A DNA stretch of 64,000 nt from Cytauxzoon felis (taxonomy: Eukaryota; Apicomplexa; Aconoidasida; Piroplasmida; Theileriidae), in NCBI GenBank assembly GCA_020283715.1, contig JAIQCW010000192.1, positions 33,597 through 97,596 of the forward strand, read 5' to 3'. Both the position numbers and the translations under genes were made by a program. This document shows positions 1-64,000 of this stretch, piece after piece. The notes beneath the pieces were generated by a model, which worked only from the letters and a program-made list of their open reading frames with translations, searched no databases and was not told the DNA's origin. The stretch's first letter is position 1. Every line of letters begins with the position of its first letter.

Positions 1-2921
1 GTACTCAATTGAAGTACAGATTATTGCATTGTTTCAAATCTGATAAAAGGCTTGGAAAATATGTTATAGAAACTTTTATTGATTCCTTGTATTCCGACTT
101 TAATAATTATGATGATAATTTATCAATGTTAGAAGATGCATTATATTTCATTACTGAATGCTCATTAGTTTATGACCATGAATGTTTCACAGCACATTTT
201 AAATCACTTGTAGATGTTGTAACAGCAGAGTTATTAATACCATTAAATGAGAATGGAGATGTTGAAAGGCACTTGGAGTATGAGGAACCGTATACTATTT
301 CTTCAGATGGTGAGAGTTTAACGACGTCTACAGTCATCATGACATATTATAACGAGTGGTCTGTTGATAGAAAGTTGAAGGTTTATGGGAATATTATAAG
401 GATGTTTGTAAATTCTACAAATGTTTCAAATAATGAAACAGTTGCTATTTTTCTTGATGTATTAAGAAACTGTCTGTTTGTTCAGGATGAAATGGGAAGT
501 AATGATATTAATGGTAACGCTGGTTATATATTGGATGTAATGTCAGAATATGAACATTTCAATACTCTCATTTTGAAGCATGTGATAATTCCATCAATTT
601 TAAAATTTAAGGAACTGTTTAAATCGTATGAAATTAACAATACAACACAATCCACATTTAATGAATCATTATCGAATACTCTTAAGATTATAATTAATAT
701 TTTTGCAAAATTGATTTCAAATATGAAATTTACAAGAATCAAACCGGAATTATCCAGTATAATTATTGATGTATCACTATATATTCTTAATTTTGATAAT
801 GTAAATGGTTTAAAATTATTAATTCTTGGGTGTATATCATCTAAAACAATACCCTTGATTGAACAAGTAATCAAAAAATGTTTTGATATTATTATGGAGA
901 AAGACGTCCATAAAAATGATATAATATTATATTTGCGTGTTATTGTAGATGTTTATAGATTCCATGAATCTCCTGTAGTTAATTCATTCGTGGATAATAT
1001 TTGTAGCAGACTTTTGGAATCTATTGATAATAAGGAATCATTAAATGAGCTCATGGTAATAAATAATGTTGATATATCTAGAGACGTAATTGAAATGTTG
1101 AACCTGAAATTGCTTAAATCTACTAATTGTACTAGGGTTTACTCTAATTTGTATTTGAAATGTATGTCTGTAATTGTTAATTTTGGGCCGTCTGTTGAGG
1201 ATGTTGTTTTGTTGATTGTAAAGTCCTTGAACAAATTTATTTTATGTAACACTGATGGAAATTTGTCCAAGTTAGTTGAAGAATCCTGTAAAATGTATTT
1301 ACCAGAGCTAATTAAAATGTATAATGATGTATGGATGGGTATAAGAGATGGTAGTATTGTCTTCAATAGAGTATTATCACAGTTAATTGTGGATATATCT
1401 ACACACTTTAACTATGGATTAAATATTAGCGATTCCATATTGTACCTACCACTTTTATCATTTAATTTGGATTCTGATTTCATCAAATTTGCCAATTCAT
1501 TGATGTGTAGAAACATATTTGACCATGTAAATTTATTAAAGATGGAATGTGCTGGGATACACCTTTGTAAAAGAGTATCTAACTTGCTCTGTAATATCGA
1601 TATCCATGATATTTTAAAGATGTTCGATAAATTACACGACTATTACAGGCCATTTATAACACTGGGATGGCTTCAGTTTTTGACTCGTAGATCCACGACT
1701 CGAACTATTGGAATGGTCAGATCGTCATCCATCGGCAATAATGATGTCTCTATTCCATTAGTATCTACCGATTGTCTTGCTGTCAGATCCTTTATCTATC
1801 TCCCCGTAAACGGTATAGCCACTCCCAGAGATCGTGGCGAAGTATCCAAGACGATCTATGGGAGTCGAGGTGATATAAATAGAGAGGCCACCACGGCGAG
1901 TGGAACGACCTCAGGTGGAGCTGCGAGTGGAAGAACCTCAGGTAGAGTTGTATGTGATAGTAATGTACTGAAGAACGGAATGAGTGCCTTTGTAGGATTC
2001 GCTTCATCCCTCATCAACAATCTCCTTGTTCCTGTTGGAAATGTTTTACAATTTATAAATTGTATATATCCCTATGATTACAAATCGGTGGTGAATTCAA
2101 TAACGATTTTGGATTTGGATAAAGAATTTGGTAGTGTAGTAGGTTTGGATTATAATGATCTGTTCTTCACTTATAGACCTGATCCTCTTGAATCTTCTAG
2201 TCCATTAATTATAAATCATCTTTTATACATGCGCAAGGCGACTAGAGTAAATTATACTGTGGACATGAAATTCACCAAAACTCTTTTAGATTCTCTATAC
2301 AATAATATCTATGTCGAGAAAACCTGTAAATCTGTATTATATTCTTTTAATTTAGAGGCAGATTTAATGCTTCTATTGCCTTTATTATCACTAAGCGATG
2401 TTGAAATGATGAAGTTTACAAACTGTATAACTTGTTTATTGGACTCATTCATGGCTATGGACGTAATTCACTCTCATTCAATAGATGTTTACGAAAAGTG
2501 GTGTAGAGATCAGTATATAATATCTTTGCAGACGCTGATACTACGTGTATTATATAATGTGACTAAGGATGATGATAGAATCTACCCCTTCGACTTCAAG
2601 CTGGATATTCTTGTAGGAGTAGACGAAGGAGGCAGTAATGTAGATATACTGGAAGGTAGATATAAAGCCATAACTGAGAAAATGATTCAAATATCGCAAT
2701 CGCATCCGGTACCATTTTCTAGAATAATGGGTATTTTAGTGATTAATTACATTATGCAGGGACAATATCTTACTGCTGAAGATCGAAATAATGTAAGTTG
2801 TTAAAGTTAACGCATGACTTTCTAGGTTATAAAATGTACGAGTAAATGTCTTGGTGACTGTAATAGACGCGTTCGTACAATGACACTTTTATGTAGACAA
2901 AAATGGATTAATAACTGTTAA
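1..2921 (+). CDS. Large alpha-helical (HEAT-like) protein, 5' partial
   Basis: The reading frame is open at the left edge of the window, so the start lies outside it. About 930 residues are visible. They are mostly amphipathic helices rich in Leu, Ile, Asn and Val, like an armadillo/HEAT solenoid, with no catalytic motif I can recognise. At about residues 590-650 the protein runs straight through a repeat cluster (1788-1945), giving the E-type peptide [13 protein letters not shown] and the D-type peptide YGSRGDINREA in frame. The first long exon ends at 2792 with a GTAAGT donor. A 33-nt intron leads to a short exon ending at 2921. An alternative donor at 2839 spliced to an acceptor near 2946 would end the protein at 3014. 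Function is unknown. Confidence 0.75.
1788..1945 (+). repeat. Mosaic repeat cluster in exon: E then D, C and A units
   Basis: E allele with the CCGT-AA-ACGG stem, then a D allele with GAC/GTC arms, then CCACGG/GAGTGG and two ACCTCAGGT boxes. Read in frame by the first gene. Confidence 0.9.
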
Positions 2922-6288: not shown

Positions 6289-8188
6289 ATGTTAAGCAGG
6301 AAAATTTTTGGCTTTTTTGCCAACAAGTCTCCATTTAATGGTTTTAAGTCTTTCTCCAGTGCCGCTAACCATGGTCCTACCAAGGAAATGAACATGTGCA
6401 CAGCCATCAACAGCGCACTTGACATTTCGATGCAGGAAGATCCAACGTTTGTGGATTTCTATGTATTCAATTCATAAAACTATATAGGACTTGCGTGTTT
6501 GGTGAAGATGTTGCGTTTGGTGGTGTTTTTAGGTGTTCGGTTGGTCTGTTGGAGAAATACGGAGAGCATAGAGTCTTCAATACACCTATATCAGAACAGG
6601 TACGATGAATAATTATGTAATGAAACATTATTAGGGTATTGCTGGATTCGCAATAGGTATGGCAGCCCTCGGCGCCAACGCAATCGCCGAGATACAGTTC
6701 GCCGACTACATCTTCCCCGCATTTGATCAAGTTAGTTTTGAATTTATATTATTGCGATGATTTATACAACACACATCTTCGTAATTTCTGTATTCATCTT
6801 CCGCCTGGTTCTAATCCAACTCTCTTCATCCTGCAGACAGCTCTCCACCTGAGGTCTATCTTTTCCATTGCATGGAGCTCTTCTATTTACTTCCCCTTCC
6901 AGCTCCCGTAGATCGCTTCCAGGTCCGCTTGAGGTTACATCCTCACCACCTTCTTCACTGCCACGATCTCCGGGAGTGGCTTCACCCTTCAGGGATAGGT
7001 AATTAGAGAAGCTGTCTGCAAGACAAGGAAAGAACCTCAAGTGCAGTAGACAGAATTATAGTTGTTTCACTCTTACGAATGTTTCATCTTTAAACTTTAG
7101 ATTGTGAATGAGGCGGCTAAATTTAGGTATCGTTCTGGTGGTAGTTGGGATGTTGGTAAATTAACGATTCGTTCGACTTGGGGTGCTGTTGGTCATGGTG
7201 GTTTATACCATTCCCAAGCTCCTGAATCACAATTTGCCCATGCGGCTGGATTGAAGGTTTGTATATTTTCCACAATTCTATAATCTTCAGATTGTTATAC
7301 CAAGAGGTGCTTATCAAGCAAAAGGATTATTACTTAAATCTATTAGAGATCCTAATCCAGTCCTATTTTTTGAACCCAAGGCCTTGTATAGATCTCAAGT
7401 AGGCCAAGTACCAATTGGAGATTATGAACTAGAACTTTCAAAAGCAGAAATCGTTAAGGAAGGAAAAGATGTAAGTTGAAACTATACAGTAGTATCTATC
7501 CACCCTTATTTCAATTAATTCACCTGAAGTCCAATCCAACTATCCTTGCCATTGCATGGAACCTCTTCTATTTACTTCCCCTTCCAGCTCCCATAGATCG
7601 CTTCCAGGTATTCCACTTGGAGTCTCCACTTGAGGTTACATCACTACACCGCCACGATCTCTGGGAGTGGCTCTACTCTTTAGAGGGAATGAATTAGGAG
7701 AGCTGACGGCAGGATGAAGAGTGTTGGATTGAACCTCGAGTGGAGTAGATTTCACTTGTTTTTTTCTTATGATATAATAATTATTGTAGGTTACGATAGT
7801 TGGTTATGGTAATTCGGTGGAGATAATGTTGAAGGCTGCTGCTAGTGTTGAGAAGAGTCATGGTATAAGTGTTGAGGTTATAGATTTGCAGACTGTATTG
7901 CCATGGGATGTTGAGACTGTAGAAAAGTCTGTACTTAAGACAGGTAGATTAATTGTAACTCATGAAGCAGCGGTGAGTATAATATGAAAATGAATAATTA
8001 ATTTATAGAAAACATTGGGTATGGGTGCAGAAATTGCTGCTACAATAGGTGAACGTTGCTTTTTTAAATTAGAAGCACCTATAAAACGTCTATGTGGATA
8101 TGATACACCATTTCCATTGGTTTATGAAAAATTTTATTTACCAAATGAACATAAAATAGCTGATGCCATTATAGACATTTGTGAATAA
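6289..8188 (+). CDS. BCKDHB: Branched-chain 2-oxoacid dehydrogenase E1 beta subunit
   Basis: This is the beta subunit of the thiamine-diphosphate E1 component that decarboxylates 2-oxoacids in mitochondria. In apicomplexans this complex can take over the role of mitochondrial pyruvate dehydrogenase. The N-terminus ([14 protein letters not shown]) looks like a mitochondrial leader. Then come [71 protein letters not shown] and [17 protein letters not shown], all in family order. I chose ATG 6289 because the frame upstream has only a TTG. Introns of about 35 nt alternate with two of 370 nt (6731-7100) and 319 nt (7471-7789). The long ones are long only because each contains a repeat cluster. The coding frame looks intact. 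Confidence 0.92.
6815..7050 (+). repeat. Mosaic repeat cluster in E1-beta intron
   Basis: Forward B, A, C (CATTGCATGG) and D (AGC/GCT arms), then a reversed E with the CCCT-GA-AGGG stem and a reversed B. It lies inside intron 6731-7100. Confidence 0.9.
7505..7745 (+). repeat. Mosaic repeat cluster in E1-beta intron
   Basis: Degenerate A, then C (CATTGCATGG), D (AGC/GCT arms), A, reversed E and a reversed B variant (CTGACGGCAGG). It explains the 319-nt intron. Confidence 0.9.
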
Positions 8189-8254: not shown

Positions 8255-11200
8255 ATTTGATAATGTGTGTTACAATAATTTATATTTTATAGATTCTTCA
8301 TGTAACAAGTTTAATAATTCATCCAGTGTATATACAATTTGATCATTTGTATCTAATGGTCTTAATGATACACTACGTGTCTCCTTTTCACGATCACCTA
8401 CAATTGCCATATAATTCCATCGTTGTCCTTGACCAATCTTAATTTTTTTATTTATTGTATTCATACTATCATCAATACCAACATTATAACCTGTAATAAT
8501 CATGTTATATAAAATAATATTCTCATACCCTTATCATTAAGTAATTTATATAATTCATTAGCATAATCTAAATGTTTATTCGATATAGGTATCAACAAAA
8601 TCTGTGTAGGAGATAACCAAAATGGTAATTTCCCTTTTGTCTGTTCCAATACAATAGCTATAAAACGCTCAATCGAACCCAATATCGCACGATGAATTAT
8701 CACCGGTCTAGAATAACCATTACGTAATTTACTACCAGATGATTGATTATCCGATACAACCAATTCATCTATAATAATAATATATTACATGTAATATACA
8801 TCCTTTTACACTCGCCTCCACCTGAGGTTACCACCTTGTCTTCCACTCGCCGTGGAGGCTCTTCCATTTACCCATCTCTAAAGAGTAGAGCCACTCCCAG
8901 AGATCGTGGCAAGGTTAGTTATTGGACCTCAAGTGGATTACCTGTAGCTGATCTACGGGAAGCGGAGGGGGAAGTAAATAGAGAAGCTGTCTGCAAGACG
9001 ACCTCAGGTGGAGGCGAGTGGAACGATGGTAGGATTGGACCTCAGGTAGAGTAGACAAGATGAATATTTCATTTTGGTGTACGTACCATTGAATGACTTG
9101 TCGCGATATTCGAGGTTGAATCTAATGGGTAGATTGAAGTCTAATTGAATAGTGCCACATTGATGTTCGCGGTTTAAACAATCAAATAACAATATGTCAA
9201 TCTTTGGACCATAAAATGCACCATCACCCTCGTTCAATGACCTGAATATCATAATTAATGAAAATTAAAAGTAAATAGTCTAATGATGAAAATAATCAAC
9301 CGAAAGCCATTTTGCAGACAACCCTTACTAGGGGTCTAATCCACCTTCCCTTCCACCTCTTTTCCTCTTGCAGACAGCTCCTCTTACTTCCCCCTCCGCT
9401 TCCCTGAGATCAGCTACGGGTTAGAATTATTATTTACGAGTTACTTATTGGATTGGTACATTTATTTCTGCCAGTATTCTTTCGTTTCGGCCATGATTTG
9501 GTTAAAACACATTTACAACTTTCGCAACAAAACCACTGTCGCATGACATTGGAAATACTACATCTATGTATATCTTTCAAACAATTTTTATAAGCATTGC
9601 TACCACACCGGCATATACATCTCATGTATGGGTTTCTACACCTATTGATAGTTACATTTCCTCGTATAATTACATCTTCACCTGAATTAAGTGTCACTTT
9701 CGGTTCACAATCACATTTTGCTGTCTTCAATACCTTCGTATACTCCTCAACGAGTTTAATGAGGCCATAACCTGGAAGCGATCTACGGGAGCTGGAAGGG
9801 GAAGTAAATAGAAGAGGCCGTCTGCAAGACGAAAAGAGGTGGAAGTGGAAGATGAGGATTTAGCCTCAGGTGATGTATCTTCATTCTTGGTTGTGATAGT
9901 AACATACCATTCATGTCCGAATTTATCGAGTGCATCTTTGAGTGCGGATTCTGCGCAATTCCAGAGTTCATCATCACCGAGTGCTTTGGGTGGTTTGGTT
10001 GAGAGTTTGAATGTGTATTTGAAGTTGAAAAGTGAGTAGACGTTTGAAACGAATTTGAGTAGACTTAAAACTTCATCTTGAATTTGATCTTGAGTACAGA
10101 ATATATGTGCATCATCTTGTTGGAATCTCCTTACTCTACAGATGAATATAAATTTTTGAATTTGTTGTACCTAGTAAGACCACTTAGACTCCCAGTAAGT
10201 TCATTACGATGTAAGACACCAAAATCAGCCAATCGTAGAGGTAAATTACGATAAGATAGATTCATATGCTTAAACATTAAACAATGACCTGGACAATTCA
10301 TAGGTTTCATCCCCCATTCTGAATTATCATTCACAAATGTATACATGTTATCCTGTAGAATATATATATAAGAAGAAAATACACAATAAACAAGATAACC
10401 ACGTTTTCTTTCCACTCGCAGTTCCATATGAGGTCCTATCCACCTCTCCTCATCCTGCCGTCAGCTCTTCTATTTACTTCCCCTTCCAGCTCCCGTAGAT
10501 CGCTTTCAGGTAGTCCACTTGAGGTTACATCCAACAGATACTTAGCACCATCTTCCATCATTCCCATGATGGATGATCCATCACTACCTTCACCTTCATC
10601 ACGATCTCTGGGAGTGGCTCTACCCTTCAGGGATAGGTAATTAGAAGAAGGCTTCACGCCGAGTGGAAGGAGAGTTGAATTGGAATCAGGTGGAACTCCG
10701 AGTGGATATATTAGATTATGATTATGTGTATTATGTTATAATTGCTTACTTTATAATTTTCATAGTGTCCTGAGCATTTCCATAAATCACAGGAGTAGAT
10801 ATTGGGTGTAATGACTTCTTGGTATCCTTTATTACGATAATTTTCCTATGATTTATTATTATTGTTTGATTTGATTATAAATATAGATATACTCTTAGAA
10901 AATCTATGAGTCGATTATAAATTTTAGCGCCATTAGGTAACCAGAAGCATGAACCTGAATGAGGTATAAAATATTTAATTAGATATTGATATACCAGGTG
11001 AATTAGATGTATCAAAATAAAATAAATTTAAATTTGTACCAATAATACGATGATCACGTTCTTTAGCTTCTAATAAAAGTCTATTATATTCTTTTAACAT
11101 ATCTTTTTCAGGAAATGATATCCCATATACACGTTGTAATATATCTATAAGTATAAAATAAATAAATTAAATAAATAAACCTCCATTAGAATTAGATAAC

Positions 11201-12530
11201 CAATAAGATGATGACATTTTTGTTATATCAAATGAATTACCTTTAACATATGATATAAATGGTATATGAGGACCTTTACATATATCAATAAAATCACCAC
11301 AACGATAAACTTGTGTCATTGTACCATCAATAACTTTATTTTTAATTAATTCAATTTTAAATGGATTATATTTCATTAATTCTAATGCTTCATCTTTTGT
11401 ACATATTAATCTTTCAAATGATTTATTACAAGATACTAATTTATCAATACATTTTAATAATATATCTTTATCATCTGGTCTAAATACCTAATTTTATATT
11501 AATAAATAATTATAATAATACATATTATACTTACATTATTACCCAAATAACAATCATAATAAAATCCATTTGTAATTGCTGGTCCAATTGTTAAATAAGC
11601 ACCATAACATGTCTCAATAGCATAACCTAAATATTTTTACTTTAAAAAAAATAATAAAATTTATAATCTACTCACCCAATATATGAGATGATGAATGCCA
11701 ATAAACATGTTTACCCAATTCACTATTAAAATCCAAAAATTTTAAATCACATGAATCCTCCAATGGACGAGTCAAATCCCATAATTCCCAACCATCATTA
11801 CATCCATCGACATCCTCATCATCTACACCATACAATAAATCCATACCTCTATTTATCTCATACTTCACCTAATTAATTTTATAAATACAAAACATATATA
11901 ACAAAAAATCCTAAGAAGCTCATCCACCTGAGGTCGTCCTGCCGTCAGCTTCTCTATTTATCTCCCCCTTCGCTTCCCTGAGATCAGCTTCGGGTTCCAC
12001 ATGAGGTCTCCACTTGAGGTCCATCACTACCTTCTCATCGCCACGATCTCTGGGAGTGGCTATACTCTTTAGAGATAGGTAATTAGAAGAGGCCACCACG
12101 GCGAGTGGAAAAGAAGTGGATTGGACCTCGGGTGGAGGCGAGAGGAACAGAGGTGGATTGGACCTCAGGTGGATTGATATCTTTAGATAACACTTGTATA
12201 ATTAGTTTGTTTGTTTGACGAACTTGTGCTACGATAACTTTTTTTGAGAATTTCTTGTCTAGATTGGCGATGATATCGAGTGGTTTTGATTTAAAGGATT
12301 CTCCTTGGATATTTATAATTTCATCATTGAAATGGACTTTAATATTGATAGGACTTTTTTCCATGGCTATAGAAAGATTATTAAATGAGTAGGATATTAG
12401 TAATACCATCGAGTTTATCTTGTTGTATTTTGTATAGCCTCTCATAGATAGCTAAACGTTCCTTTATGAAGGACGGATTATCTTGTAGTTTAAATAATGA
12501 TGGATCTTTTACGATTTTACTGCTAGACAT
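8255..12530 (-). CDS. ThrRS: Threonyl-tRNA synthetase
   Basis: This class II synthetase charges tRNA-Thr. In transcript order the exons give an N-terminal extension, a TGS domain ([19 protein letters not shown]), the editing-domain motif [27 protein letters not shown], the zinc-site motif [13 protein letters not shown], motif 2 ([14 protein letters not shown]), [35 protein letters not shown], motif 3 ([14 protein letters not shown]) and an anticodon-binding domain ending [16 protein letters not shown]. Five repeat clusters lie within the gene, all apparently in introns. One intron (about 9251-9908) also carries a foreign-looking Cys-rich frame. The start is the ATG of MSSSK. A frame upstream, joined by a possible 46-nt intron, would add a basic, Leu-rich leader but shows no ATG. 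The exact stop and splice sites are approximate. Confidence 0.88.
8805..9055. repeat. Mosaic repeat cluster in ThrRS intron
   Basis: A, C, forward E (CTCT-AA-AGAG), then reversed A, D (with a perfect CCCGTAG-type pairing in GTAGCTGATCTAC), B and A. The cluster is nearly symmetric about its centre. Confidence 0.9.
9335..9420 (+). repeat. Left arm (B-D) of a repeat that encloses the Cys-rich frame
   Basis: TTGCAGACAGCTC followed by a D allele with GCT/AGC arms. It pairs in inverted orientation with 9774-9845. Confidence 0.85.
9421..9771 (-). other. Cys-rich open frame carried between two inverted repeat arms, inside a ThrRS intron
   Basis: Between a forward B-D arm (9335-9420) and a reverse D-B arm (9774-9845) lies about 350 bp whose minus strand is open from the right-hand arm to a stop at about 9434. 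It encodes roughly 110 residues with about 16 Cys in patterns such as CDCEP, CICRCGS and CCESCKC, rich in Lys and Arg. The host gene's splice donor (minus-strand GTATGT after GHEW) and acceptor before [10 protein letters not shown] remove the whole block. It is therefore not part of ThrRS. It may be a gene fragment captured with the repeat. I do not recognise the family, and no start codon is obvious. Confidence 0.5.
9774..9845 (-). repeat. Right arm (D-B) of the same enclosing repeat
   Basis: Reversed D allele with AGC/GCT arms and reversed B. The left arm carries a different D allele, so the two arms are not a recent duplication of one another. Confidence 0.85.
10420..10705. repeat. Mosaic repeat cluster with G module in ThrRS intron
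   Basis: A, B, D (AGC/GCT), A, the palindromic G segment (10545-10585), reversed E with the CCCT-GA-AGGG stem, then C and A. Confidence 0.88.
11920..12180. repeat. Mosaic repeat cluster in ThrRS intron
   Basis: A, B (CTGCCGTCAG), D (GCT/AGC), two A boxes, reversed E, C and A. Its right edge adjoins the TGS-domain exon, which stays open briefly into the repeat. Confidence 0.88.
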
Positions 12531-12883: not shown

Positions 12884-15486
12884 TTAATGGGTAGGTCCTT
12901 CTATAATTACATAATCATTATTTTCTATATCTAATATATAATCATCTGATTTTTTGACGATTTTATCCATTCCTGATGTTAATATTAAATAATTTGTATC
13001 ATTAAAGACCTAAGTATATGTAATGTGATATATAATATCCCTTACCTTTTTAATGAATAATTGATCATTAATATAAGCTTCAATTATATATTTTGAACAA
13101 CATATACAATATTCACAAGATTCTCCATATAATTTTGATATTTTATAATCTATAATTATAAATTGAATAATGATATTGAAATGTACCAGATAAAGATAAT
13201 CTAATAGATTGTGGAGTATCACCTATACATGATTTTGAATCGTGTGGTGCTGAAAATCCTTTTGGATGTTGTAATAATGAGATTATAAGTTCAACAGTCA
13301 TTGATGCACACATTGATATAATTCCTGGTTTAACAATTGTACATGTTTCATTTACAGGTCTAAATATCCATAATATTCTAATTATTATATTTGAAATTAC
13401 CTTCCAGTAATTGTATTTGTTAAAAGTTCATCACAACAAAAATAACAACTACATTTAAATTCACCATAAGAATGACGTATAATATTACAACTATCATATG
13501 ATAATCCTGATGATATAATCAATGGTACATTATTATCACCTTTATAATTTCTATAAATTATTACATAATCAATTTCAATTCTAACCTAACAGCACCAATC
13601 AAACTAGGTAACCATCGAGATTCTTTAGAATCTGTAGATAATATAATAACATCACATCTATCCATTATATATTCAATCTTATCAATACCATCTTCCAATT
13701 CCTTATCATTATATAAATGACCTATAATAATTTATATAATCATTAAATCAAATTACCCGGCATCGGTACCTTAAAACATATAGACTCTATATTCACATCA
13801 GGACGAATTAATTTAATCGTATCATTTGCAGCATCCACCTTAAACTATAAAATAATTAAAATGAAAATTATTCACATCCTCCACTTGAGGTCTTTCCACT
13901 CGCCGTTCCACCTGAGGTCGTCCTGCCGTCAGCTCTTCTATTTACCTATCTCTAAAGAGTAGAGCCACTCCCGGAGATCGTGGCGGTAGAGAAGGTAGTG
14001 AGAATGTAAACTCAAGTGGATTACCCGTAGCTGATCTCAGGGAAGCGGAGGGACAACTAAATAGAAGAGCTGACGGCAGGACGACCTCAGGTGGAACGGC
14101 GAGTGGAAAGACCTCAAGTGGAGGAGCTGACATCGGAAAAGATATATATGATTGTATTTATAAGTACCTTGTTTTTTTGTGTATGTATAAAGAGTGATTG
14201 TTTGGATGTGTTTGTAACAATGCTATGATCGACGAGTATGAAATTGCTATGATATGAAGGTGGAGTATAAATGGTACTTACCGAATTCCCCAATCTATCA
14301 TTTGTCTTATGATATAGCATCCTAAAGATCCAATACCGATAATGCATACTTTAAGCTGTGTGATTTTATCGATATTTAATTGTGGTACAATCCTCCAAGT
14401 CATGAGTTGTAAATGCAACTCTTCTGACATTCTTGAGATTGAATCAGGATCTATAAATTCGGATAATGATTGAAAACTTTCAAATTTTGGAAAGTTAAAT
14501 GACTGTGAAGATTTAAAACCGAATGATAAGCGGCAATTTCTAAATGAATTTTCATCTGGGATTTTAATTTTTTCTCTTCTGTATATCCTATTGCTAATAA
14601 GTAGAATATTCAATTCATTGGAGAATAATTTTAATTTCCAGAAGAATATAAATAATAAATTACACCAACGTCTATCTAAATTTGTATTAAATTCGATAGA
14701 ATTTGTAATTATTATAAACAGATTATCCAAATTTATAACTTCTGTATCTAAAAATAGTAGACCATTACATGTACTCAGTCTTAACAAGTCAGTTAATAAC
14801 AACTCTTTGTTCTTGATGTATACAGTAAATACACATGGAGAAGTATTGTACAAAAACTGTTGTAATAAAACTTTCTCTTGAATTTCAATGTCTGTACATG
14901 TCAATTTGTATTGAATTTCTGGATAAATTGATGGATTAGCTATGCTGTAATGACATGAATAATTCTTAATGTCAATATAGACAAAGAAAATGAATTTTTG
15001 AGTATTAAGTAATACATTAGTACTTAATAGAACATTCATATCCTCCAACGGTATATTGAACATCCTATAAGAATTTTTAAAGTCTTTGTGGCCTATAAAA
15101 TCACTAATCATCAATCTCTTATCCAAATTCCTAAAATCTTGTAAGGTGTCTGAAATATACAACAACCCTTGAACAAATTTACATTTACAATCATCATTTC
15201 CATAAATTTCTATATTCTTAGAATTTATCAAGTCATCTTCCGCTAAATTTCGGTCATTTGTAGACTCTGATGCACGTTTACAGTGTGTAAATCTACACAC
15301 TTTATCTCCAAATGAATGTCTATCAAGCCATAAAGTCCCATTCAATAAATATAACGCATTGATATCAACTCCACTAACATTCAATTTATATTCAAGCAAT
15401 TTACGACTATACAACTCCAAAAAGAAGGACTTGTCCACATTATAAATCTGCGGTATGAAGCGAATTACATCATCCGCAACTACCAT
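12884..15486 (-). CDS. ATG7: Autophagy E1-like enzyme ATG7
   Basis: ATG7 activates the ubiquitin-like ATG8, which in apicomplexans is attached to the apicoplast membrane. The first exon (14278-15486) is about 400 residues of divergent N-terminal domain ending in HLQLMTWRIVPQLNIDKI, followed by the nucleotide-binding glycine motif CIIGIGSLGCYIIRQMIDWG. Later exons give ILVDHSIVTNTSKQSLF, FKVDAANDTIKLIRPDV, IILSTDSKESRWLPSLIGA and CSCYFCCDELLTNTITGR. The catalytic-Cys segment TCTIVKPGIISMCASMTVEL is followed by ISLLQHPKGFSAPHDSKS. All fit the family in order. The gene ends DYVIIEGPTH. One intron carries a repeat cluster (13877-14120). The C-terminal part is assembled by eye across several 30-45 nt introns, so its exact edges are uncertain. 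Confidence 0.85.
13877..14120. repeat. Mosaic repeat cluster in ATG7 intron
   Basis: A, C, A, B, forward E, then reversed A, D (GCT/AGC), B, A, C, A. One of the most complete palindromic copies. Confidence 0.9.
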
Positions 15487-20215: not shown

Positions 20216-20249
20216 GTGAATAGAGTGTAATGTACGAATGTGTATACTT

Positions 20250-48499: not shown

Positions 48500-48790
48500 C
48501 TCTCCTTCCACTTGAGGTTACCTCTACCGTAGGTCCAACCTCTCTTCGTCCTGCCTTCAGCTCTCCGCTCGAAGTTACAAGTTTGTCTTCCACTAGGCGT
48601 GGTGCCTCTTCCAATTACCTATCTCTAAAGAGTAGAGCCACTCCCAGAGATCGTGGCGGTGAAGAAGGTATGGATTGGACCTCAAGTGGAACCTGTAGCT
48701 GATCTCAGGGAAGCGGAGGGGGAAGTAAATAGAGAAGGCGCCACGCCTAGTGGAAGAGTTGAAGGTAGTGATTGGACTTCAGGTAGACTA
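48500..48790. repeat. Mosaic repeat cluster 3' of POLRMT
   Basis: A, B, A, C, forward E, reversed A, D (GCT/AGC), C and A, ending about 40 bp before the POLRMT stop codon. Confidence 0.88.
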
Positions 48791-52136: not shown

Positions 52137-55100
52137 ATGTGTTTCCAATTCAATGGTATAGTTAAATTTGGAGGACTAATGTCTATAGACAAGGCGTTAA
52201 ATGGGTGTGTTAGGTCTGAGTACCTGTTGTTTATAGTAAATAGCTATAAGGATCAGTATAGAAGGAGTAATTTCATCAGATGTTGTTACAAAGGTACTGG
52301 ATCACATAGCTCAACTGGAGATTCATCTAAGATATTCAAGAGGTCATATACTAATTTGAGTAAAGAATGGTTACCTATAAGGAATCAGTATACAAAGTAT
52401 AGAATAACTAAACCCTGGACAACAGACAGTACATTTGATGATATATTCTTATCACAACCATCACGGTAAGATGAAATCATTTTTAATATTATCATTTCCA
52501 CTATTAGTGATGACTTTTATCCATTCACCAAAGAAATGCCCATTTTCTTACGGTTCCTCAACCTACTAACCACCGCCGAAGATCGCAAAGATGATTTCAT
52601 CAAATTCGTACAAAGGTTTGTATAACAAAGAAATATAACTATTGGATTGTTATACACTCAGCTCGATGTCCAATCACTACCTTCAACTCTTCCACTAGGT
52701 GTTCCACCTAAGGTCGGTCTTGCAGACAGCTTCTTTATTTACTTTCCCCTTCGCTTCCCAGAGATCAGCTACGGGTCCACTTGAGGTTACATCCAATACA
52801 TTCAAGGTCTGTTCTTCCGGGTATACTTTATACCGAGGATGATCTACGGGAATCCGAGGGGAATTAAATAAAGAAGCTGTCTGCAAGACGAAGAGAGTTG
52901 GATTGGACCTCTAGTGGTGTTAATCTTCTATGGTTAATATATTGTTGTTATTTATCTTATTGTAGATGTGAGAATGGATTAGTTGTGGAGAAGGATGTGT
53001 ACATAACAAAAGATGAGTTAACGAATTGTATGTGGAGTAATGGTTATAGTGATAATGAAATAAATGCGATAAGATTTGCATTCCCAAATGATTATAAATT
53101 TCATTATCCTGGTAAGTTATTATTGATTAAATATTATTATTTTATTAGAATTATCTGTTATGTTCCAATTAGATGAAGATGATTGTTATCGTTATTGTCT
53201 CAAAGAACGTTCATCTAATCCTGAAGAATTAATAGAATTGAAATTGAAGAAACCCCAGAATTTAATATCAAGCTACGGTCTAATTTTCCTAGGATGCTGG
53301 TTCGGATTATCAAATGCTGTACTCGGTAATGCATGGTTCTTTGCCAAAACACTACCATTCGGTGCCGTATTCTATATGCTAGCCGCCTACTTCCAGTATG
53401 TTCTCTTCCACTCACCGTTCCACCTAAGGTTGTCCTGCCGTCAGCTACTCCACTGCCGTGGTGGCCTTTTCATTTACTTCCCCTTCCAGCTCCCATAAAT
53501 CGCTTCCAGGTCCCATTTGAGGTCCAATCCTTTACACCATCACTTCAGCCACGATCTCCGGGAGTGGCTCTACTCTTTAGAGATAGGTAATTAAAAGAGC
53601 TGTCTGCAAGACTAACGGTGGTTGTAACCTCATGTGAAGGTCTGTTCTTCTGGGTAGAATTTTTTTCGTTCTTATGGGTTGAATTATTGAAGAATTTTCT
53701 TCGGTCCCCTTACTCTCAATTATCCATACTATCACTTGTGTATAACCTAATATCAGCCCATATTAACTATTGCACATAACCTCAAGTGGAACCTTGAAGC
53801 GATCTACGGGAGCTGGAGGGGGAAGTAAATAGAAGAGCTGACGGCAGGATTGGACCTCGAGTAGAGTAGATAATTTATGTGATGAAATTTTTTAAACATT
53901 AAATTTCCTATAGGAAATGGATAAAGGAATATATGTGGAAGGAGATGGATGTATTGATTGACAAATCTAAACAGGATAAAGAGTATTGTGAAATGGCTAT
54001 ATATAATCAATTGATTAGTATGTTCATTCTTATTAATTATAATTTCATTTAACAATTTAGAGTATCTACAAGATTCCAAATGTAATGAATATGTCAACAG
54101 CTTCCAAAATGAAGTTATTAAACGTATGAAGAAATATCGTACCGCATTACTCAATCGTATGATCAATAACGCCACCAAACTCATGAATGATAAATTACAA
54201 TCCTTACACCTTCTCGAACAAAATATACAAAACTCCATTCAAAAAGTTTGTATACCCAACATTCCATTCGCCTCCACCTGAGGTCGTCTTGCAGACAGCT
54301 CTCCACCTGAGGTTACAACCACTGTTACCACTAGGCGTGGAGCCTTCTTCCAATTACCTATCTCTAAAGAGTATAGCCACTCCCGGAGATCGTGGCGATG
54401 ATGAAGGTAGTGTTGGATGTAACCTCAAGTGGAAGTGGAAAACCTGTAAGCGATCTATGGGAGCTGAAAGGGGAACTAAATAGAGAAGAGCCGTCTGCAA
54501 GACCAACGGTGTTTGTAACCTCTGGTGTAACGACGAGTCTAAAGGATTAATTTCCATTATGTTATTATATTACAGGTAATGATTGATGAATTGGTTAAGT
54601 TATTTTTGGAGGAGTTTAAGAGTGATGATAAGTTGAGGAACAGTGCGATAGTATCTGCTGTTGATATTATTAAGGGTGATGCTTATAATATTAAAAATGA
54701 TCCAATATTTAATTTCTTTAATAATCAGTTATCTGAATTTCAAAAGGTTTGTTATATTATTTTTGATTTAATTGAAATTTATATTCAGGCCAAGAGTTCT
54801 AGTAAGGTTGTGAAACGTTGTATGGATACATTTGATAAGAAGGAACAGGAACTTTTAAATTCATTTACTATAAGGTTAGTTGATTATAGATTATTTTATA
54901 TCCTTCTAGTAATGATGAACATAAAGAAGTAACAAAATTGGCTAAAGTTTGTAAATCTAAGGATGGATATGATTTATCATTATTATCTAATGAACAATAT
55001 AATCGTTTGAATAATCTCTTTACAACATTTACACAACGGTATTTACAACAACAATTATTAATCTTTATTATTTTATTTTAGTATGGGTTATTATATACCA

Positions 55101-55899: not shown

Positions 55900-58286
55900 T
55901 CAAGTGCCAATTATTGTGTTCTTTATATGGTAACATGCGGATGTCAATTGAAAATATTGTGATCCACCTGATATATATATAAATTATAAATTTATATATT
56001 TTATCATCTACCTTGTAATAGTGCATAATCACGATTTGATAATTCTAATGTTATCTTTGATTTATTTATATCATTTATACTATCATCATATGTTATATAT
56101 TCAATCAACTATTAATCATATAATTTATAATATATATCTAATTACCTGCTGAAATAATATCGCTACATCCCATCCATTATATATTATATCCTTACATACA
56201 CTCTCAATCTAAAATTATAATCTTAACTAATCTAATATCTTAAATACTAACATCACTATTCTTATCACGACATGATTTCATCAAATTCTCTACTATACTA
56301 CGAGGAGGTTGCTAAAAATCAATCATTAATTCATATCAATTCATTACTCACCCCGGATACACTATATACAGTCTCCTCAGTTATCTCATTATATAATGAT
56401 GCCGTCGACTATAATATCAGTTAATATTGTCATATAATAGATGATATACAACTCATCTTACACCTGAGGTCCTTTCCTTAGTCTTGCAGACAGCTCTTCT
56501 ATTCATTTCCCCTTCCAGCTCCCGTAGATCGCTTCCAGGTTCTCCACTTGAGGTTATAAACCTAATCTCAACGAGATAAGGATAAAGTGACGGAATATAT
56601 ATTTGAAGGGATTACTCAATCAATATAAATTGGAATGAAGTGAGGTTCAGTAAACTAAATAGAATCATCAAATTCCTCATCAATGAGATATTAACATTAG
56701 AAATACATTCAATAGGCATTCCATAATCTTTATGAGTTTCCCCAGAAATTATGAAATTCGTTCAAATTTTGAGTGTTAAAATGAAGAAGTGGAAAACAGT
56801 GATTGGACCTCAAGTGGAACCCGTAGCTGATCTCTTGGAAGCGGAGGGGGAAATAAATAGAAGAGCTGACGGCAGGACGACCTCAAGTGGAGAAGCTGTC
56901 TGCAAGACGAAGAGAGGTGGAAGTGGAAGAGGTGAAGATAGTGATTGGACCTCGAGTGGAGTATTATGTTCATGTAAACAAACTTGTAGTAGTGTGATGC
57001 ATTTTCTCATATCACCGAGTGATATTTTGGTGAGGAATTCGAGTGCCTGTATAATAATGAGAATTTATTGGATATGAGATACTTTAATATCATATTTGAC
57101 ATGTTCTGAATCACAAATTGATTCTAATTTAGAAATTTGTGATGATTGATTTATAGGTTTAAAATGGAATACAGAACAACGACTATATATAGGCCCAATT
57201 ATTTTATGTAAATAATTACATATTAATATAAATCTCGATATATTCGAATAATTCTCTATCACACGCCTTAATGCCGATTGAGCATCAGATGTTATCATAT
57301 CCGCCTCATCCAATATTATCATCTTGTAATTCGGCATCACCCTATAAAATACATATTTAGTCAAATCATACATATACTCCACCTGAAGTCCAAACCACCT
57401 AATCATACCACTCGCCGTGGTGGCCTTCCTTATTTATTTCCCCCTCCGCTTCCCTGAGATCAGCTACGGGTAGCCCACTTGAGGTTACATCCAACACATC
57501 CATAGCACCATCTTCCATCATTCCCATGATTGATGATCCATCACTACACTTCTCACCTCCACGATCTCTGGGAGTGGCTCTACTCTTTAGAGATAAATAA
57601 TTGGGAGAGGCTCCATGCAATGGGAAAGTGAGGTGGATTAGACCTCGAGTGAATGCATGTTCGTCCGGGTAGAATTCCTGTTCTTAGGGGTTGAACATTT
57701 ACGTTCTTCCGGGTTGACATACCGAGGATGATCTACGGGAATCCGAGGGGAGGTAAATAGAAGAGCTGTCTGCAAGACCTACGGTGGAACGGCGAGTGGA
57801 AGAGGAGAATACAGTGATTGGAGTTCGGTGGAACATATATGTATTTAACATACCTATTGGTTTCTGGGTTGATTTTATTGGTTGAAATATTGATTCTGGT
57901 GTATGTTTTGATGCGGTCTCTGACGACATCGATTCCTCTTTCATCGGATGCATTGAGTTCTAATACGCGTTCTTTCATTCCATCGGTACTATTAATATAT
58001 GAATATGAGTATATATTGGAGATGTTTTTATACCCATAGATTTGTCTAGCCATTGCTAATGCGGCTGATGTTTTACCGGTACCTGGAGGTCCATGGAATA
58101 TCATATGAGGCATCTATATGAAGAATTTTGATATAATTATTAATTAATAAATAAATATTAACATACATTATGTGTTTGTACTATCTGTTCCATGATAGAA
58201 ATCGCTTGAGTTTGATATATGACATCCGCCAACTTCTTTGGTCTATATTTCTCAACCCATGGTACTTCTTTATATAACTTTGACAT
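55900..58286 (-). CDS. RFC4: Replication factor C small subunit (RFC4/RFC2 type)
   Basis: This is a clamp-loader ATPase subunit that opens PCNA. The first exons read [19 protein letters not shown], then Walker [21 protein letters not shown] and [18 protein letters not shown]. The next give Walker [21 protein letters not shown] and the arginine finger region [12 protein letters not shown]. Then [17 protein letters not shown] leads into the collar domain across several very small exons ([51 protein letters not shown]). About eight introns of 35-50 nt are seen. Two are hugely expanded by clusters 56458-56960 and 57382-57850. All motifs are intact. I favour the RFC4 type over RFC2 or RFC5, without certainty. 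Confidence 0.88.
56458..56960. repeat. Composite mosaic repeat with enclosed H segment, in RFC4 intron
   Basis: Forward A-B-D-A (to about 56560) and reversed A-D-B-A-B-A (56800-56960) enclose about 240 bp. The enclosed segment is the inverted relative of 60410-60650. Confidence 0.87.
57382..57850. repeat. Mosaic repeat cluster with G module in RFC4 intron
   Basis: A, C, D (GCT/AGC), A, G, reversed E, C (CATGCAATGG), A, F array, reversed D (GGAT/ATCC), B, A, C and A. Confidence 0.88.
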
Positions 58287-59097: not shown

Positions 59098-59320
59098 CCA
59101 CTCGATGTCCAATCCAACTCTCTTCCCACTGCCGTGGAGGCTCTTCTATTTAGTTGTCCCTCCGCTTCCCTGAGATCAGCTACGGGTATTCCACTTGAGG
59201 TCCAATGACTACCTTCCTCACTGCCACGATCTCCGGGAGTGGCTCTACTCTTTAGAGATAGGTAATTAGAGAAGCTGTCTGCAGGACGAAGAGAGGACCT
59301 CAGGTGGAAGTGGAATGAGA
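59098..59320. repeat. Mosaic repeat cluster between the Cys-rich protein and eS26
   Basis: A, C, D (GCT/AGC), A, reversed E, B and A. Lies in the convergent spacer. Confidence 0.88.
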
Positions 59321-59958: not shown

Positions 59959-61051
59959 ATGCAAAAAATAAATAAAATCGGTACTACAATCTATCCCGAT
60001 GATAATAATGAAGTAAACGATCTTAATGAAGACTTTTATGCATCTTCTCTAGACGACGAAGACAATTTGAATGAAATTATAGACACAGACGCTATACTCT
60101 GTTGCGCTGGATGCTTTACTACCGTCTGCTATAAATGCAAATTGTAAGTCATTACCCATAACATATTATCCAAACGTAAACAACCACTGAATTATTCTAC
60201 ACCAAAGTTACTATCCACTAGATTCTACCTGAAGTCCATCCGACGACCGTTAGATCTAGGTAAATATCCACCGTAGGTCATTCAACCTTGTCTTCCTCTT
60301 GCAGAGAGCTCTCCACTTGAGGTCTATCCTGCCGTCAGCTTCTCTATTTACTTCCCCCTCCGCTTCCCTGAGATCAGCTGCGGGTTCCACTTGAGGTCCA
60401 ATCACTGTATTCCACTACTTCATTTTTAATTCCTAAATTTGAAGGAAATCCTTAATTTCTGGGGAAACTACTCAAGATATCTCAGTGAATATCAAATGAA
60501 TTTCCGATGTTAATACTTCATTCGAAAGGAATTTGATGATTGTATCTAGTTTTATCATCCTCACTTATTCCAATTTATATTCATTGAGATATCCTCACAA
60601 ACATGGATTCCGTCACTTTAGTCATATCTCAGCGAGATTAGAAATTAACCTCAAGTGGAACCTGGAAGCGATCTACGGGAGCTGGAGGGGGAAATAAATA
60701 GAGAAGGCTGACGGCAGGACGAAAAGATGTGCAGTGGACCTCGAATGGTTGATAATGTTATAACTTTGACTGTAGCTTTCACTATATTCGTTTGACTTGA
60801 CATGTATATATAGGTTTAATGGTATATTTCGATCGGATGTTGCGAGTAATGTATATATGGACAATTCTATAAAGAAGGTATTGGATATAGATGTATTGGA
60901 TGGCAAGTTTAATATAAAGCGTGGTTTGGAGTGTATGGATAATATTGATGGTGTAGATGTGATACGGTGTATAGAATGTTGTAATATAGTTGGTAATATA
61001 GATGATGAGAATAAATATAATTTTATAAATATAATAGCTAATAAGCCATAA
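59959..61051 (+). CDS. EAPP-like (E2F-associated phosphoprotein family) protein
   Basis: Exon 1 (59959-60143) is acidic (NEVNDLNEDFYASSLDDED) and ends with the Cys motif DTDAILCCAGCFTTVCYKCK, which is diagnostic of the EAPP family. A 670-nt intron holding a composite repeat follows. Exon 2 (60814-61051) continues LFNGIFRSDVASNVYMDNS and ends with a second Cys pair (VIRCIECCNIVGNID). Splice phase fits (TT before, G after). About 140 residues in all. EAPP proteins are small nuclear proteins, described as E2F interactors in animals. Their role in a parasite without classical E2F is unknown. Confidence 0.7.
60222..60745. repeat. Composite mosaic repeat with enclosed H segment, in the EAPP-like intron
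   Basis: Forward A-A-B-A-B-D-A (to 60405) and reversed A-D-B-A (60645-60745) enclose about 240 bp that is the inverted relative of the segment in the RFC4 intron. Confidence 0.87.
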
Positions 61052-61111: not shown

Positions 61112-64000
61112 ATGGATATATTAAATTTATGTATAGAAGATTTGGTTATATTAGATCGTAGTATATATGATTATATAATATCATTAGGTATAGATATAAA
61201 ATTTGATGATGAATATTATATAAAGACATATAATAATAGTAATATATATATATTAATTAAAGATATAATAGATAATAAATTATTATTAAAACATTATAAT
61301 AATATATTTAATAATATAGATATACAAATAATAGATATAATAAGGATATTATTATTACATTTAGATCGTGGTATAATATTTATAAATAAAATTGGTATTA
61401 ATAATATAAATATAAAATTATTTTGTATTATTTATTTAGATATAATTTATTTATTATATTATAATATTATTAAAATTAATATTATATTTAATTTAGAAGA
61501 TTGTATATATTTATATAAACAATTTATTAATATAGATAATATTATATATTATAATTATAATATTATACATAATAATATTAGATATGAAATTTATGATCTA
61601 TTATTAAATATATTATGGATACATCTTAAAGATATATGGTGGATACATTATCATAAACAATTTAATAATATCAAATTATTATTACCATTCATTGCTAATA
61701 TCAATACACAATCACATCAAAAAATACCTAATCTACAACAACTTAATATATTACTCAATCATATCAATAATTCCATTATCGCTACCGATTCAATTCCATA
61801 CATTAATTATCATGTTCATACAAACAATCACTATAATACTCCACACGATATACAATCCAACTCTTTTCGTCCTGAAGACAGCTCTCCACCTGAGGTCCAA
61901 TCTGCCTCTATTCCACTCGCCGTGGAGGCCTCCTCTAATTACCTATCTCTAAAGAGTAGAGCCACTCCCGGAGATCGTGGTGAAGGTAGTGATGGATCAT
62001 CCATCATGGGAATGATGGAAGATGGTGCTAAGGTTCTGTTGAATGTAACCTCGAGTGGAATACCCGAGAACGATCTACGGGAGTTTGAGGGGGAAGTAAA
62101 TAGGAGAGCTGTCTGCAAGACCAACGGTGGAAAGACTTCAAGTGGAGAAGCTGACGGCAGGAATGTAACTTCAAGTTATCTACCCGGAGGAACAGAGAAT
62201 GTTAACCCGGAAGAACGTGATGTACTGATTGGACCTCAGGTGGAATCCGCAGCTGATCTACGTGAAGCGGAGGGACAACTAAATAGAGGAGGCTCCACGC
62301 CGAGTGGCAGGACCTCAGGTGGAATGACAACTGAGTATGATCGTCGATGGAAGATATTTGACGGTGGATCGATGATGGATATTGATGATGTAGGATTTAT
62401 ATTGAGTAATACTGTTGATGATATAAATACACTATCTGCTAATAGCTCACCATTAATAATACCTCAATCTAACATTAATCCTACATACTATGTCCAATCC
62501 AATTCCTCTTCCACCTCCAACCGAGGTCGTCTTGATGATAACTCTCCATACGAGGTCCAATCCAACTCTCTTCCACTCTTCGTTCCACCTGAAGTTACAA
62601 CCTCGCGTTCTTTTGCAGAGAGCTCTTCCAATTACCTATCTCTGAAGAGTATAGCCACTCCCGGAGATCGTGGCGGAGGTGAAGGTAGTGATATAACCTC
62701 AAGTGGAAGTGGGCTACCCGTAGCTGATCTCAGGGAAGCGAAGGGGGAACTAAATAGAGGAGGCCGCCACGGCGAGTGGATAACCTCAGGTGGAGAAAAT
62801 GGGGTAAAAGATGGTTATGGGGATAAAAAACCTCATAAAAAGAATCTACCCCATGATTTGGATAATAAACCCGACGATATTTCCTACAATTCACCTGAAC
62901 TACAAGGTGATGACGAGTACAAGACCTCGAGTGGAAAACCCGAGAACGATCCACGGGAGTTTGAGGGGGAAGTAAATAGAGAAGCTGACGGCAGGATGGA
63001 CCTCTGGTGGAGAGGCTCCACGCCGAGTGGAAGAGGAGGTGAATACAAGGATTGTACTTCATCTGTATTGTATGAGTATGATTTATTATATCCTCGATGG
63101 TATGATATAATGAGGGTATGTATGATAGGTGTTGTATATATATTGATATTGGATTCATATGTATTATTATTGGATAATTTATATATGTATGAGTATGATA
63201 TTGGTATAATATGTAAGAATATAGATATATTATTAGAATTGATGGATATTGTATATAATATTGATTATAGATATACAATATGGTGTAAGGATAGATTAGG
63301 TATATATTCAGATGAATATTTAATAAAAATATATAATATATATGAAGATTATATAATAAATAATAATAATATGAAATTAATACAATATAATAATATAAAT
63401 TTATATATATTAAAACCTATAATGAATAATATAATAAATTATTATATAATTTAATTATAAATATATCATATATAATATATAATAGAATAATAAATATAAA
63501 ATCATTAAATAATTTTTATATAAATTTATTATATAATAATTATTTTATTATTGGACCTAATGGTATATTATCTAAATTTATATATAAATTACCATTAATT
63601 ATTAAAATTACTATATGTTATGAAATATTTATACCTATTATTATATATTATATTAATAATCATATTTATAATTTAAATCATGAAATTAATCTTTTTAATT
63701 CATTAGCATTATGGGATTGTATTATTAATCTTATCGGTATCAATAATATACATCATCATCATATACATTCACTCATATTAATTATCGAATATCTTAAATT
63801 CAATCATTATATCAATACACAACAATTACAATCATACCTTGTACAATTCAGAATCAAACAATTCAATATCTACACCATACAGCATTATAAACATATTCAT
63901 ACATATAATCCACACGATGTTCAATCTCTATCTTCTTCCACTTCCACCCGAGATCGTCCTGCCGTCAGCTCTCCACATGAGGTCCAATCCAACTCTCATT
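61112..64000 (+). CDS. Very AT-rich protein with three in-frame repeat clusters, 3' partial
   Basis: The first frame is 780 residues (61112-63454). The non-repeat parts are almost entirely Ile, Asn, Tyr, Leu and Asp encoded by A/T codons (MDILNLCIEDLVILDRSIYD; VVYILILDSYVLLLDNLYMY). They are interrupted in frame by clusters at 61855-62330, 62495-62795 and 62925-63060. After the stop at 63454, another frame of the same style opens at about 63480 and stays open to the window end (PLIIKITICYEIFIPIIIYY; NSLALWDCIINLIGINN), again running into a repeat. This is probably the same protein, separated by a small intron or an indel. Helical, with no recognised domain. Confidence 0.6.
61855..62330 (+). 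repeat. Exonic mosaic repeat cluster 1 in the AT-rich protein
   Basis: A, B, A, C, E, G, A, D (AAC/GTT arms), B, A, B, A, F, A, D, C, A. In frame for about 158 residues. Confidence 0.92.
62495..62795 (+). repeat. Exonic mosaic repeat cluster 2 in the AT-rich protein
   Basis: A variants, C, B (mutated), E with CTCT-GA-AGAG stem, A, D (GCT/AGC), C and A. In frame. Confidence 0.92.
62925..63060 (+). repeat. Exonic mosaic repeat cluster 3 in the AT-rich protein
   Basis: A, D with AAC/GTT arms, B, A, C. Half element, in frame. Confidence 0.88.
63905..64000 (+). repeat. Mosaic repeat cluster cut by the window end
   Basis: A variants and a B (CCTGCCGTCAG). The frame of the AT-rich protein is open through it. 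Confidence 0.85.

What the first reader, a model, noticed from the sequence alone, without database searches (positions are those of the whole stretch)
1788..64000. A slot-and-allele mosaic repeat family spread through introns, spacers and exons
About 45 clusters share one grammar: an A box, a B or C hairpin, then D or E, followed by the mirror image. Each slot is filled by one of several interchangeable alleles (for example at least five D alleles and several B/C alleles). This is unlike a normal transposon family, where copies differ only by drift. No transposase, reverse transcriptase or integrase frame is seen in any copy. I know of no described piroplasm repeat with this build; the nearest analogy is the Rickettsia palindromic elements.
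Basis: partly seen in the sequence, partly recalled or inferred. Interest (0 to 1): 0.95.

Follow-up and report, generated by a model that had tools for sequence, protein, structure and literature searches.

The report
Shuffled hairpin cassettes throughout Cytauxzoon genome
The cat parasite Cytauxzoon felis carries thousands of short mirror-image DNA cassettes whose interchangeable hairpin pieces look freely reshuffled among copies and are even read as protein inside genes, including its vaccine-candidate antigen.

Summary
The window belongs to the Cytauxzoon felis genome. It holds 46 clusters covering 16% of it; the core loop has 7,145 exact copies genome-wide against 14 for the reversed pattern, roughly 3,500 elements. 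Each element is two inward-pointing arms, A box - B hairpin - linker - core (103 of 108 multi-core clusters). "D" and "E" are alleles of one core: a constant loop in a stem that changes wholesale yet stays complementary (99.5% paired; shuffled 57.7%). Slots inside D arms are mostly unlinked (14 of 15 pairs), yet exact module words sit by cores in 390 of 398 cases. D never faces D (0 of 109). Copies of one element stop at or inside its A boxes; no target duplication was seen and no mobility gene in the few families searched. All 21 elements inside long frames read D-to-E in one intrinsically open frame. Antigen cf76 carries two; its two deposited forms differ only in a block around the first. 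Most likely: foldback elements mixed by ectopic conversion or template switching. Mixing is a statistical inference; dispersal is unexplained.

The parts
1818..1945 (.). D E5' L' B(CCAC) A' A' (D-E5 class)
   Evidence: in a long frame
6828..7044 (.). B A B(CCAT) L E2 A D' L' B'(GTCT) A'
7549..7743 (.). B(CCAT) L E2 A D' B'(CTG) A'
8818..9049 (.). A B(CCAC) L D A' E1' L' B'(GTCT) A' A'
9720..9830 (.). B' E2' L' B'(GTCT), half element
10454..10645 (.). B(CTG) L E2 A G' D' L'
11924..12172 (.). A B(CTG) L E1 A A D' L' B(CCAC) A' A'
13881..14121 (.). A A B(CTG) L D A' E1' L' B'(CTG) A' A'; probably inside an ATG7 intron
   Evidence: upstream exon, downstream exon 13564-13731 judged by eye, Pfam silent on it
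15676..15941 (.). A B(CCAT) L E4 F A' E2' L' B'(GTCT) A'
16573..16648 (.). A' E1' L' B(CCAC), half element within the PLU-1-like frame
19100..19324 (.). B A B(GTCT) L D A' A' E1' L' B'(CTG) A'
19971..20224 (.). A B(GTCT) E2 A G' D' L' B'(CTG)
21779..22273 (.). A A B(CCAC) L E2 A F' F' L E1 A G' D' L' B'(CTCT) A' A', compound
23034..23574 (.). compound E1, E2, E5 facing D'; inside the ABCF gene frame 22298-23998
25587..25981 (.). compound E1, E5 facing D', then E1; inside the ABCF gene frame 24023-26245
27104..27517 (.). A B L E4 F F A B(GTCT) L D A' E1' L' B A'
28348..28813 (.). A A A A B(CCAC) D F x6 A' E2' B'(GTCT) A' A'; in frame in a Vps36/EAP30 gene
29342..29617 (.). A B(CTCT) D A' E1' B'(GTCT) A' A' A'
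30773..31047 (.). B A B(CTG) L D G A' E1' L' B'(CCAT) A'
31538..31662 (.). B(GTCT) L E5 D' L' B'(CTG)
34272..34808. A B(CCAC) D - AT-rich centre - E1' L' B(CCAC) A' (two clusters: 34272-34367, 34719-34808)
35885..36110 (.). A B(GTCT) L D A' A' E1' B'(GTCT) A'; query used to map copy ends
38119..38430 (.). A B A B(CTG) L E2 A F' F' D' L' B'(GTCT) A' A'
40441..40772 (.). B A B(CCAC) L D F F F A' E2' B(CCAC) A' B' A'
42358..42639 (.). A B(CTG) L E1 A D' L' B'(GTCT) A' B'(GTCT) A' with a 46-bp tandem B'-A' unit
44591..44759 (.). B(CTCT) L E1 F' E4' L' B(CCAC)
46482..46590 (.). A' E1' B'(GTCT) A' B'(CTG), half element
46994..47098 (.). E2' B(CCAC) A', half element
47478..47806. A B(GTCT) L E1 - centre - A' E1' L' B(CCAC) A' B' A' (two clusters: 47478-47580, 47679-47806)
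48508..48753 (.). A B B(CCAC) L D A' E1' L' B(CCAC)
52704..52917 (.). A B(GTCT) L E1 A F' E4' B'(GTCT) A'
53420..53680 (.). A B B(CCAC) E2 A D' L' B'(GTCT) F'
53779..53864 (.). A' E2' L' B'(CTG) A', half element
54274..54503 (.). A B A B(CCAC) L D A' E2' L' B'(GTCT)
56460..56959. long-centre class: A B(GTCT) E2 A - 250-bp centre - A' E1' L' B'(CTG) A' B' A' (two clusters)
57379..57778 (.). A B(CCAC) E1 A G' D' B'(CCAT) A' F' F' E4' L' B'(GTCT), compound
59098..59307 (.). A B(CCAC) L E1 A D' L' B'(GTCT) A'
60296..60748. long-centre class: B A B(CTG) L E1 A - 250-bp centre - A' E2' L' B'(CTG) A' (two clusters)
61869..62322 (.). B A B(CCAC) L D G A' E3' L' B' A' B' F F A' E1' L' B A', compound; in frame 61106-63454
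62517..62793 (.). A A B(CTCT) L D A' E1' L' B(CCAC) A'; in frame 61106-63454
62924..63030 (.). A' E3' L' B'(CTG) A' B, half element; within frame 61106-63454
63944..63983 (.). A B(CTG) A, near the window end

Best explanation
A large family of foldback elements, mostly about 200-500 bp, in the nuclear genome of Cytauxzoon felis. Shown: most have two inward-pointing arms (A box, B hairpin, T/A-rich linker, core hairpin); modules stay together in order; slot alleles inside D arms and between arms are largely unlinked; core and B stems vary wholesale but stay complementary; one reading direction and frame is open by construction. Inferred: the hairpins are fragile sites whose repair copies short tracts from other copies (ectopic gene conversion or template switching), so order is kept by homology while alleles are exchanged slot by slot; slippage adds tandem B-A units; copies in genes survive where the open frame continues the host frame and are then translated. 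How copies reach new loci is not shown: an unrecognised transposase that leaves no target duplication, or templated insertion during break repair.
For: Inward arms in 103 of 108 multi-core clusters, about 73 expected at random (119 of 124 and 88.7 with the 16 single-core clusters). Core stem: six complementary triplets make up 253 of 291 loop-plus-linker hits; 99.5% of cells paired against 57.7% shuffled, covariation 1.10 against 0.30. Second pairing in the CCAC form of B: 88 of 94 against 49 shuffled, maximum 63. Linkage: of 15 feature pairs inside D arms (64-89 complete rows of 97 each) only the adjacent H-spacer pair is linked (0 of 2000 shuffles), the rest p>=0.16; left B x right B p=0.36; B x B in D-E pairs p=0.88. 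Exact module words within 150 bp of a core: 390 of 398 (totalled). The best genomic copy of 35885-36110 is 97% alike over 169 bases and stops at the B' slot. The two cf76 forms are identical outside residues 119-281 of the shorter one, a block that holds element 1. A 30-bp tandem in the cf76 carboxyl region is double in ten of eleven isolates (PMC3748084, passages); that it is the element's repeated B'-A' unit is my reading.
Against: No conversion event was observed; the inference is statistical and from one genome, with under 100 D arms, so weak linkage could be missed. B x core is associated (p=0.011). On alignment A2 two measures do not exceed the shuffles (pairs changed on both sides 3 against 3.0, pair types 6 against 8.2), and few allele lineages underlie the many rows. 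The divergent cf76 block also covers about 60 residues left and 25 right of element 1, so selection or allelic recombination on the antigen could explain it. My idea that new arms are added at the palindrome centre was not supported. Arms outside long frames keep their class's open frame in 154 of 166 cases (summed by hand), which may point to a constraint I do not explain.
Confidence: 0.5

Rival explanations
1. A miniature inverted-repeat (MITE) family moved by an unrecognised or lost DNA transposase; alleles are old subfamilies.
For: Inverted arms, no coding capacity of its own, high copy; copies of one element end at or inside the A boxes.
Against: No notable target duplication at lengths 2-10 and offsets 0-8 in 57 elements, largest excess about 4 of 57; slots largely unlinked; no Y1, MULE, rve or tyrosine-recombinase match genome-wide while their controls rang; Apicomplexa reported to lack class II transposons (PMC9141347, passages). 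Most eukaryotic transposase families were not searched and the Helitron control was silent.
Confidence: 0.2
2. Functional RNA element: the folded transcript is what selection keeps, for example a protein-binding or processing signal.
For: Complementary stem alleles in the core and B and in the D-internal hairpin, where I picked the best-pairing register; RNA folding z mean -3.3, range -7.0 to -0.05, over 25 elements.
Against: Positions look random or clumped, not one per gene (spacing CV 0.97 and 1.85 against about 0.98 for random); no Rfam match in the window; foldback symmetry alone lowers folding energy.
Confidence: 0.1
3. Complementary stems are kept without selection by intrastrand template switching that corrects imperfect palindromes; copies otherwise simply drift.
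For: Whole-triplet changes with arms matching; tandem B-A units.
Against: Does not explain the few high-copy alleles nor their free combination.
Confidence: 0.1
4. Protein-level cassettes: the peptide is selected, for example for surface variation.
For: 21 of 21 in-frame elements use one frame and direction; by my hand tally, 45 other open frames of 200 or more codons match cf76, mostly over its element parts (63 of 3,289 candidates scored, so a lower bound); cf76 carries two.
Against: 88 of 109 elements are outside long frames; the open frame is intrinsic to out-of-phase copies too; hosts include ABCF, Vps36/EAP30 and PLU-1-like genes.
Confidence: 0.05
5. Assembly artefact: chimeric joining of repeats.
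For: The published C. felis assembly was made from 454 reads (PMC3748084, passages).
Against: Most elements are shorter than a 454 read (read length recalled); P0121, the shorter cf76 form, which is not the genome's own sequence, also carries both elements.
Confidence: 0.03

Closest known systems
Bacterial interspersed mosaic elements (BIMEs) built of REP palindromes
   Same: Palindromic units in opposite orientation joined by spacer sequence; palindromy preserved in variant REPs, taken there as complementary mutations; strain differences (PMC2817692, passages).
   Different: Bacterial, mostly extragenic, tied to RAYT transposases; here a nuclear genome, no Y1 transposase found, also inside exons, arms with several interchangeable slots.
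Rickettsia palindromic elements (recalled; one listing only)
   Same: Palindromic, non-autonomous, found in frame inside unrelated genes with one open frame (recalled).
   Different: Sequence relation not tested; here slots vary independently and core copies number in the thousands.
Organellar hairpin elements (sponge RHE, double-hairpin elements, yeast GC clusters; listing and abstract starts only)
   Same: Short hairpin-forming repeats dispersed without a known enzyme (partly recalled).
   Different: Organelle DNA; not a fixed multi-slot convergent grammar (recalled).
MITE / foldback transposons (recalled)
   Same: Inverted arms, no coding capacity of their own, many copies.
   Different: No target duplication seen, no transposase found among the families searched, little linkage between slots.

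Membership tests
MITE | terminal inverted repeats with discrete ends | tested here: inconclusive
   of 39 main matches (40 of 3,093 candidates scored) none runs more than 10 bp past a terminal A box, 22 start and 15 end at it; the others stop inside. Two short secondary matches run 27 and 35 bp past A'.
MITE | fixed-length target-site duplication | tested here: not met
   largest excess about 4 of 57 elements over 729 combinations for each of two end definitions; ends partly obscured by decayed outer modules
MITE | cognate transposase | tested here: inconclusive
   negative with ringing controls; control silent; most families unsearched
BIME/REP | oppositely oriented palindromic units with spacer motifs | tested here: met
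BIME/REP | associated Y1 (RAYT) transposase | tested here: not met
   no PF01797 match, control rings in 5 of 14
BIME/REP | extragenic location | tested here: not met
   21 of 109 inside long frames
Rickettsia palindromic element | in-frame presence inside protein genes, one open frame | tested here: met
Rickettsia palindromic element | sequence relationship to RPE families | not tested
   no RPE sequence was compared
SINE/retroposon | a reverse transcriptase other than telomerase in the genome | tested here: not met
   the PF00078 search found one locus, a telomerase gene; other RT models were not searched

The most novel reading that the evidence does not exclude
A new kind of nuclear replicator: a genome-wide population of hairpin cassettes that is held together and diversified by ectopic recombination alone, with slots near linkage equilibrium as in a sexual population, and that exports its variation into translated proteins, including the leading vaccine antigen.
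Probability: 0.3. Interest if true: 0.92.

Novelty: new variant of a known kind. Interest (0 to 1): 0.8.

Why it matters
A species reported to have no transposable elements (PMC9141347, passages) gives about a tenth of the DNA sampled here to one repeat family (31,497 bases in clusters of two or more modules, over the 280,154 bases; not a random sample). I found no report of it. Because slots are largely unlinked over tens of bases, strain comparison could measure ectopic conversion tract by tract. The peptides recur in many proteins, so serology with cf76 fragments may partly read a shared repeat: element 2 lies in the carboxyl part of cf76, the part reported as most seroreactive (PMC3748084, passages). 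That consequence is inference.

Tried and rejected
Centre-in growth (new arms added at the palindrome tip, outer arms older): mean A-box mismatches are higher beyond 100 bp than at 50-100 bp, though not evenly and with background included, but in clusters of three or more cores the outer arms have nearest-neighbour scores as high as or higher than inner ones (E 99.6 inner; 110.8, 114.3 and 105.0 outer; D 113.5 inner and 118.0 outer; confounded by rare E3/E5 inside); dropped. Regular one-per-gene spacing: not found. H-type pseudoknot for the B slot: a second pairing is compensated, but I judge the loops too short; left open. Identification by mitochondrial cytochrome b: no match. Vps36 frame as homology query: no hit. 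Element words in viral contigs: 0; in prokaryote contigs: 5 single hits, taken as chance and not followed. Papers: no description of these repeats appeared in the listings; the library is open-licence PMC only.

Full report
Where it is. The window is contig C113 of an 8.62-Mb, 181-contig genome. A first protein search gave Theileria proteins at about 40% identity as the best hits. A search with an element-rich frame (61106-63454, residues 250-640; only the 8,000 candidates sharing most words were scored) returned two proteins, both surface antigen cf76 of Cytauxzoon felis. The genome's own cf76 lies at C114:6540-8708; its frame contains the deposited 723-residue form letter for letter, and a C. 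felis paper places full-length cf76 at contig00195:6540-8711 (PMC6310948, passages). I take the genome to be the published C. felis assembly (isolate Winnie-VA per PMC3748084, passages), though that one is given as 9.1 Mb in 361 contigs, so this copy is filtered or revised.

What is there. With regular-expression modules that I defined after reading the window, it has 50 clusters, 46 with three or more modules, 10,301 bp. In 280,154 bases (window plus L001-L017, L020-L025) I found 268 cores. Genome-wide the exact loop TCCCNNAGATC occurs 7,145 times against 14 for the reversed pattern; one D variant 2,452 times against 0; a word of the long centre 163 times against 0.

Anatomy. Read inward, an arm is A box, B hairpin, linker, core. 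On an ungapped alignment of 85 window cores (63 distinct) 99.5% of cells pair, against 57.7% when partners are shuffled; covariation is 1.10 against 0.30, and no slid register comes near. Two further measures, pairs changed on both sides and number of pair types, do not exceed the shuffles. Few allele lineages underlie the many rows, but most change all three pairs at once. B alleles are likewise mostly whole-stem variants, and the CCAC form has a second compensated pairing in 88 of 94 (shuffled mean 49, maximum 63). D arms carry a further hairpin (CTCT/AGAG 61, CCGT/ACGG 15, with the best-pairing register picked by the script).

Grammar. Arms point inward in 103 of 108 multi-core clusters (about 73 expected at random; with 16 single-core clusters, 119 of 124 against 88.7). 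D never faces D: 45 D-E, 45 E-D, 19 E-E, 0 D-D. Gap size follows the pair: D-E5 is 5 bp in 9 of 9, D with E1, E2 or E3 mostly 27-100, and 12 of 19 E-E pairs have gaps of 273-299 with a conserved AT-rich centre.

Slots are mixed. Among 97 D arms (64-89 complete rows per test), 14 of 15 feature pairs show no association (p 0.16 or more); only the internal hairpin and its adjacent spacer are linked. B left and B right are independent (p 0.36; p 0.88 in D-E pairs). B and core are associated (p 0.011). Yet modules do not travel alone: exact module words lie within 150 bp of a core in 390 of 398 cases. So order is inherited while alleles are mostly not.

Ends and mobility. Of the 39 main matches of 35885-36110 elsewhere in the genome (40 of 3,093 candidates scored), 22 start at the A edge (query 100-106), 5 at 122, 11 at the B edge (128-134), 1 at 143; 15 end at the A' edge (329-341), 15 at the B' edge (300-308), 6 between B' and A' and 3 at the inner side of B'. 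None of these runs more than 10 bp past a terminal A box; two short secondary matches run 27 and 35 bp past A'. No target duplication stands out in 57 elements. The PF00078 search found one locus, a telomerase gene. Y1, MULE, rve and tyrosine-recombinase families gave nothing while their controls rang; the Helitron control was silent.

Inside genes. Of 109 facing pairs, 21 lie in a frame open for 40 or more codons on both sides; all 21 read D to E in one frame with in-phase gaps. The frame is intrinsic: in elements whose gap is out of phase, 35 of 35 D arms and 31 of 33 E arms are open in it. Hosts include an ABCF protein, Vps36/EAP30 and a PLU-1-like protein. Theileria ABCF orthologues lack the insert, at a variable loop. 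Coding DNA is about two thirds of the C. felis genome (PMC3748084, passages), so 19% of pairs in long frames suggests depletion, though short exons are missed by my rule.

cf76. The two forms returned are identical outside residues 119-281 of the shorter, 706-residue one; that block holds element 1 and its flanks. Element 2 lies near residues 555-640 of that form. A 30-bp tandem in the carboxyl region is double in ten of eleven isolates (PMC3748084, passages); I read it as the repeated B'-A' unit. Two published primers appear to lie in the A box and D core of element 1 (same passages, by eye).

Reading. Largely unlinked slots within fixed order, constant loops with swapped stems, and no duplication or enzyme seen point to foldback elements kept mixed by ectopic conversion or template switching. 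The mixing is inferred from statistics in one genome; dispersal is unexplained. BIMEs and Rickettsia elements are the closest builds, but two tested defining features of BIMEs (Y1 enzyme, extragenic position) are not met.

Noticed in passing
window 34480-34656, 46190-46413; L010:7082-7303; L009:2930-3093: An AT-rich repeat, about 80-86% alike between copies, that sits in the centre of two D-E1 elements (34347 and L010:6976) and elsewhere.
   Followed up: partly
window 17435-17618 and 24711-24857: A second, short tandem repeat with CTCACTTCGTTCG-like words inside the PLU-1-like and ABCF frames; 11 hits in 280 kb, 7 in the window.
   Followed up: partly
window 28536-28686: 23-bp F repeats, about 6.4 copies, in the element centre inside the Vps36/EAP30 frame.
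   Followed up: no
G000:C56:73693-74436 (L018): A telomerase reverse transcriptase gene; 942 residues of open frame in the locus held.
   Followed up: yes
L031 (G000:C114), cf76: Published cf76 fragment primers appear to lie in element modules, and element 2 lies in the seroreactive carboxyl part.
   Followed up: partly
L003:3397-6231 (G000:C113:23397-26231): A tandem duplication at about 71% identity.
   Followed up: no
window 45048-46028 and others: A FAINT-domain (DUF529) gene; also AP2 at 36280-37071, EGF at 20250-21353, phage-type RNA polymerase at 48829-52047, PGK at 33024-34220 and an ATG7-like exon at 14278-15507.
   Followed up: no
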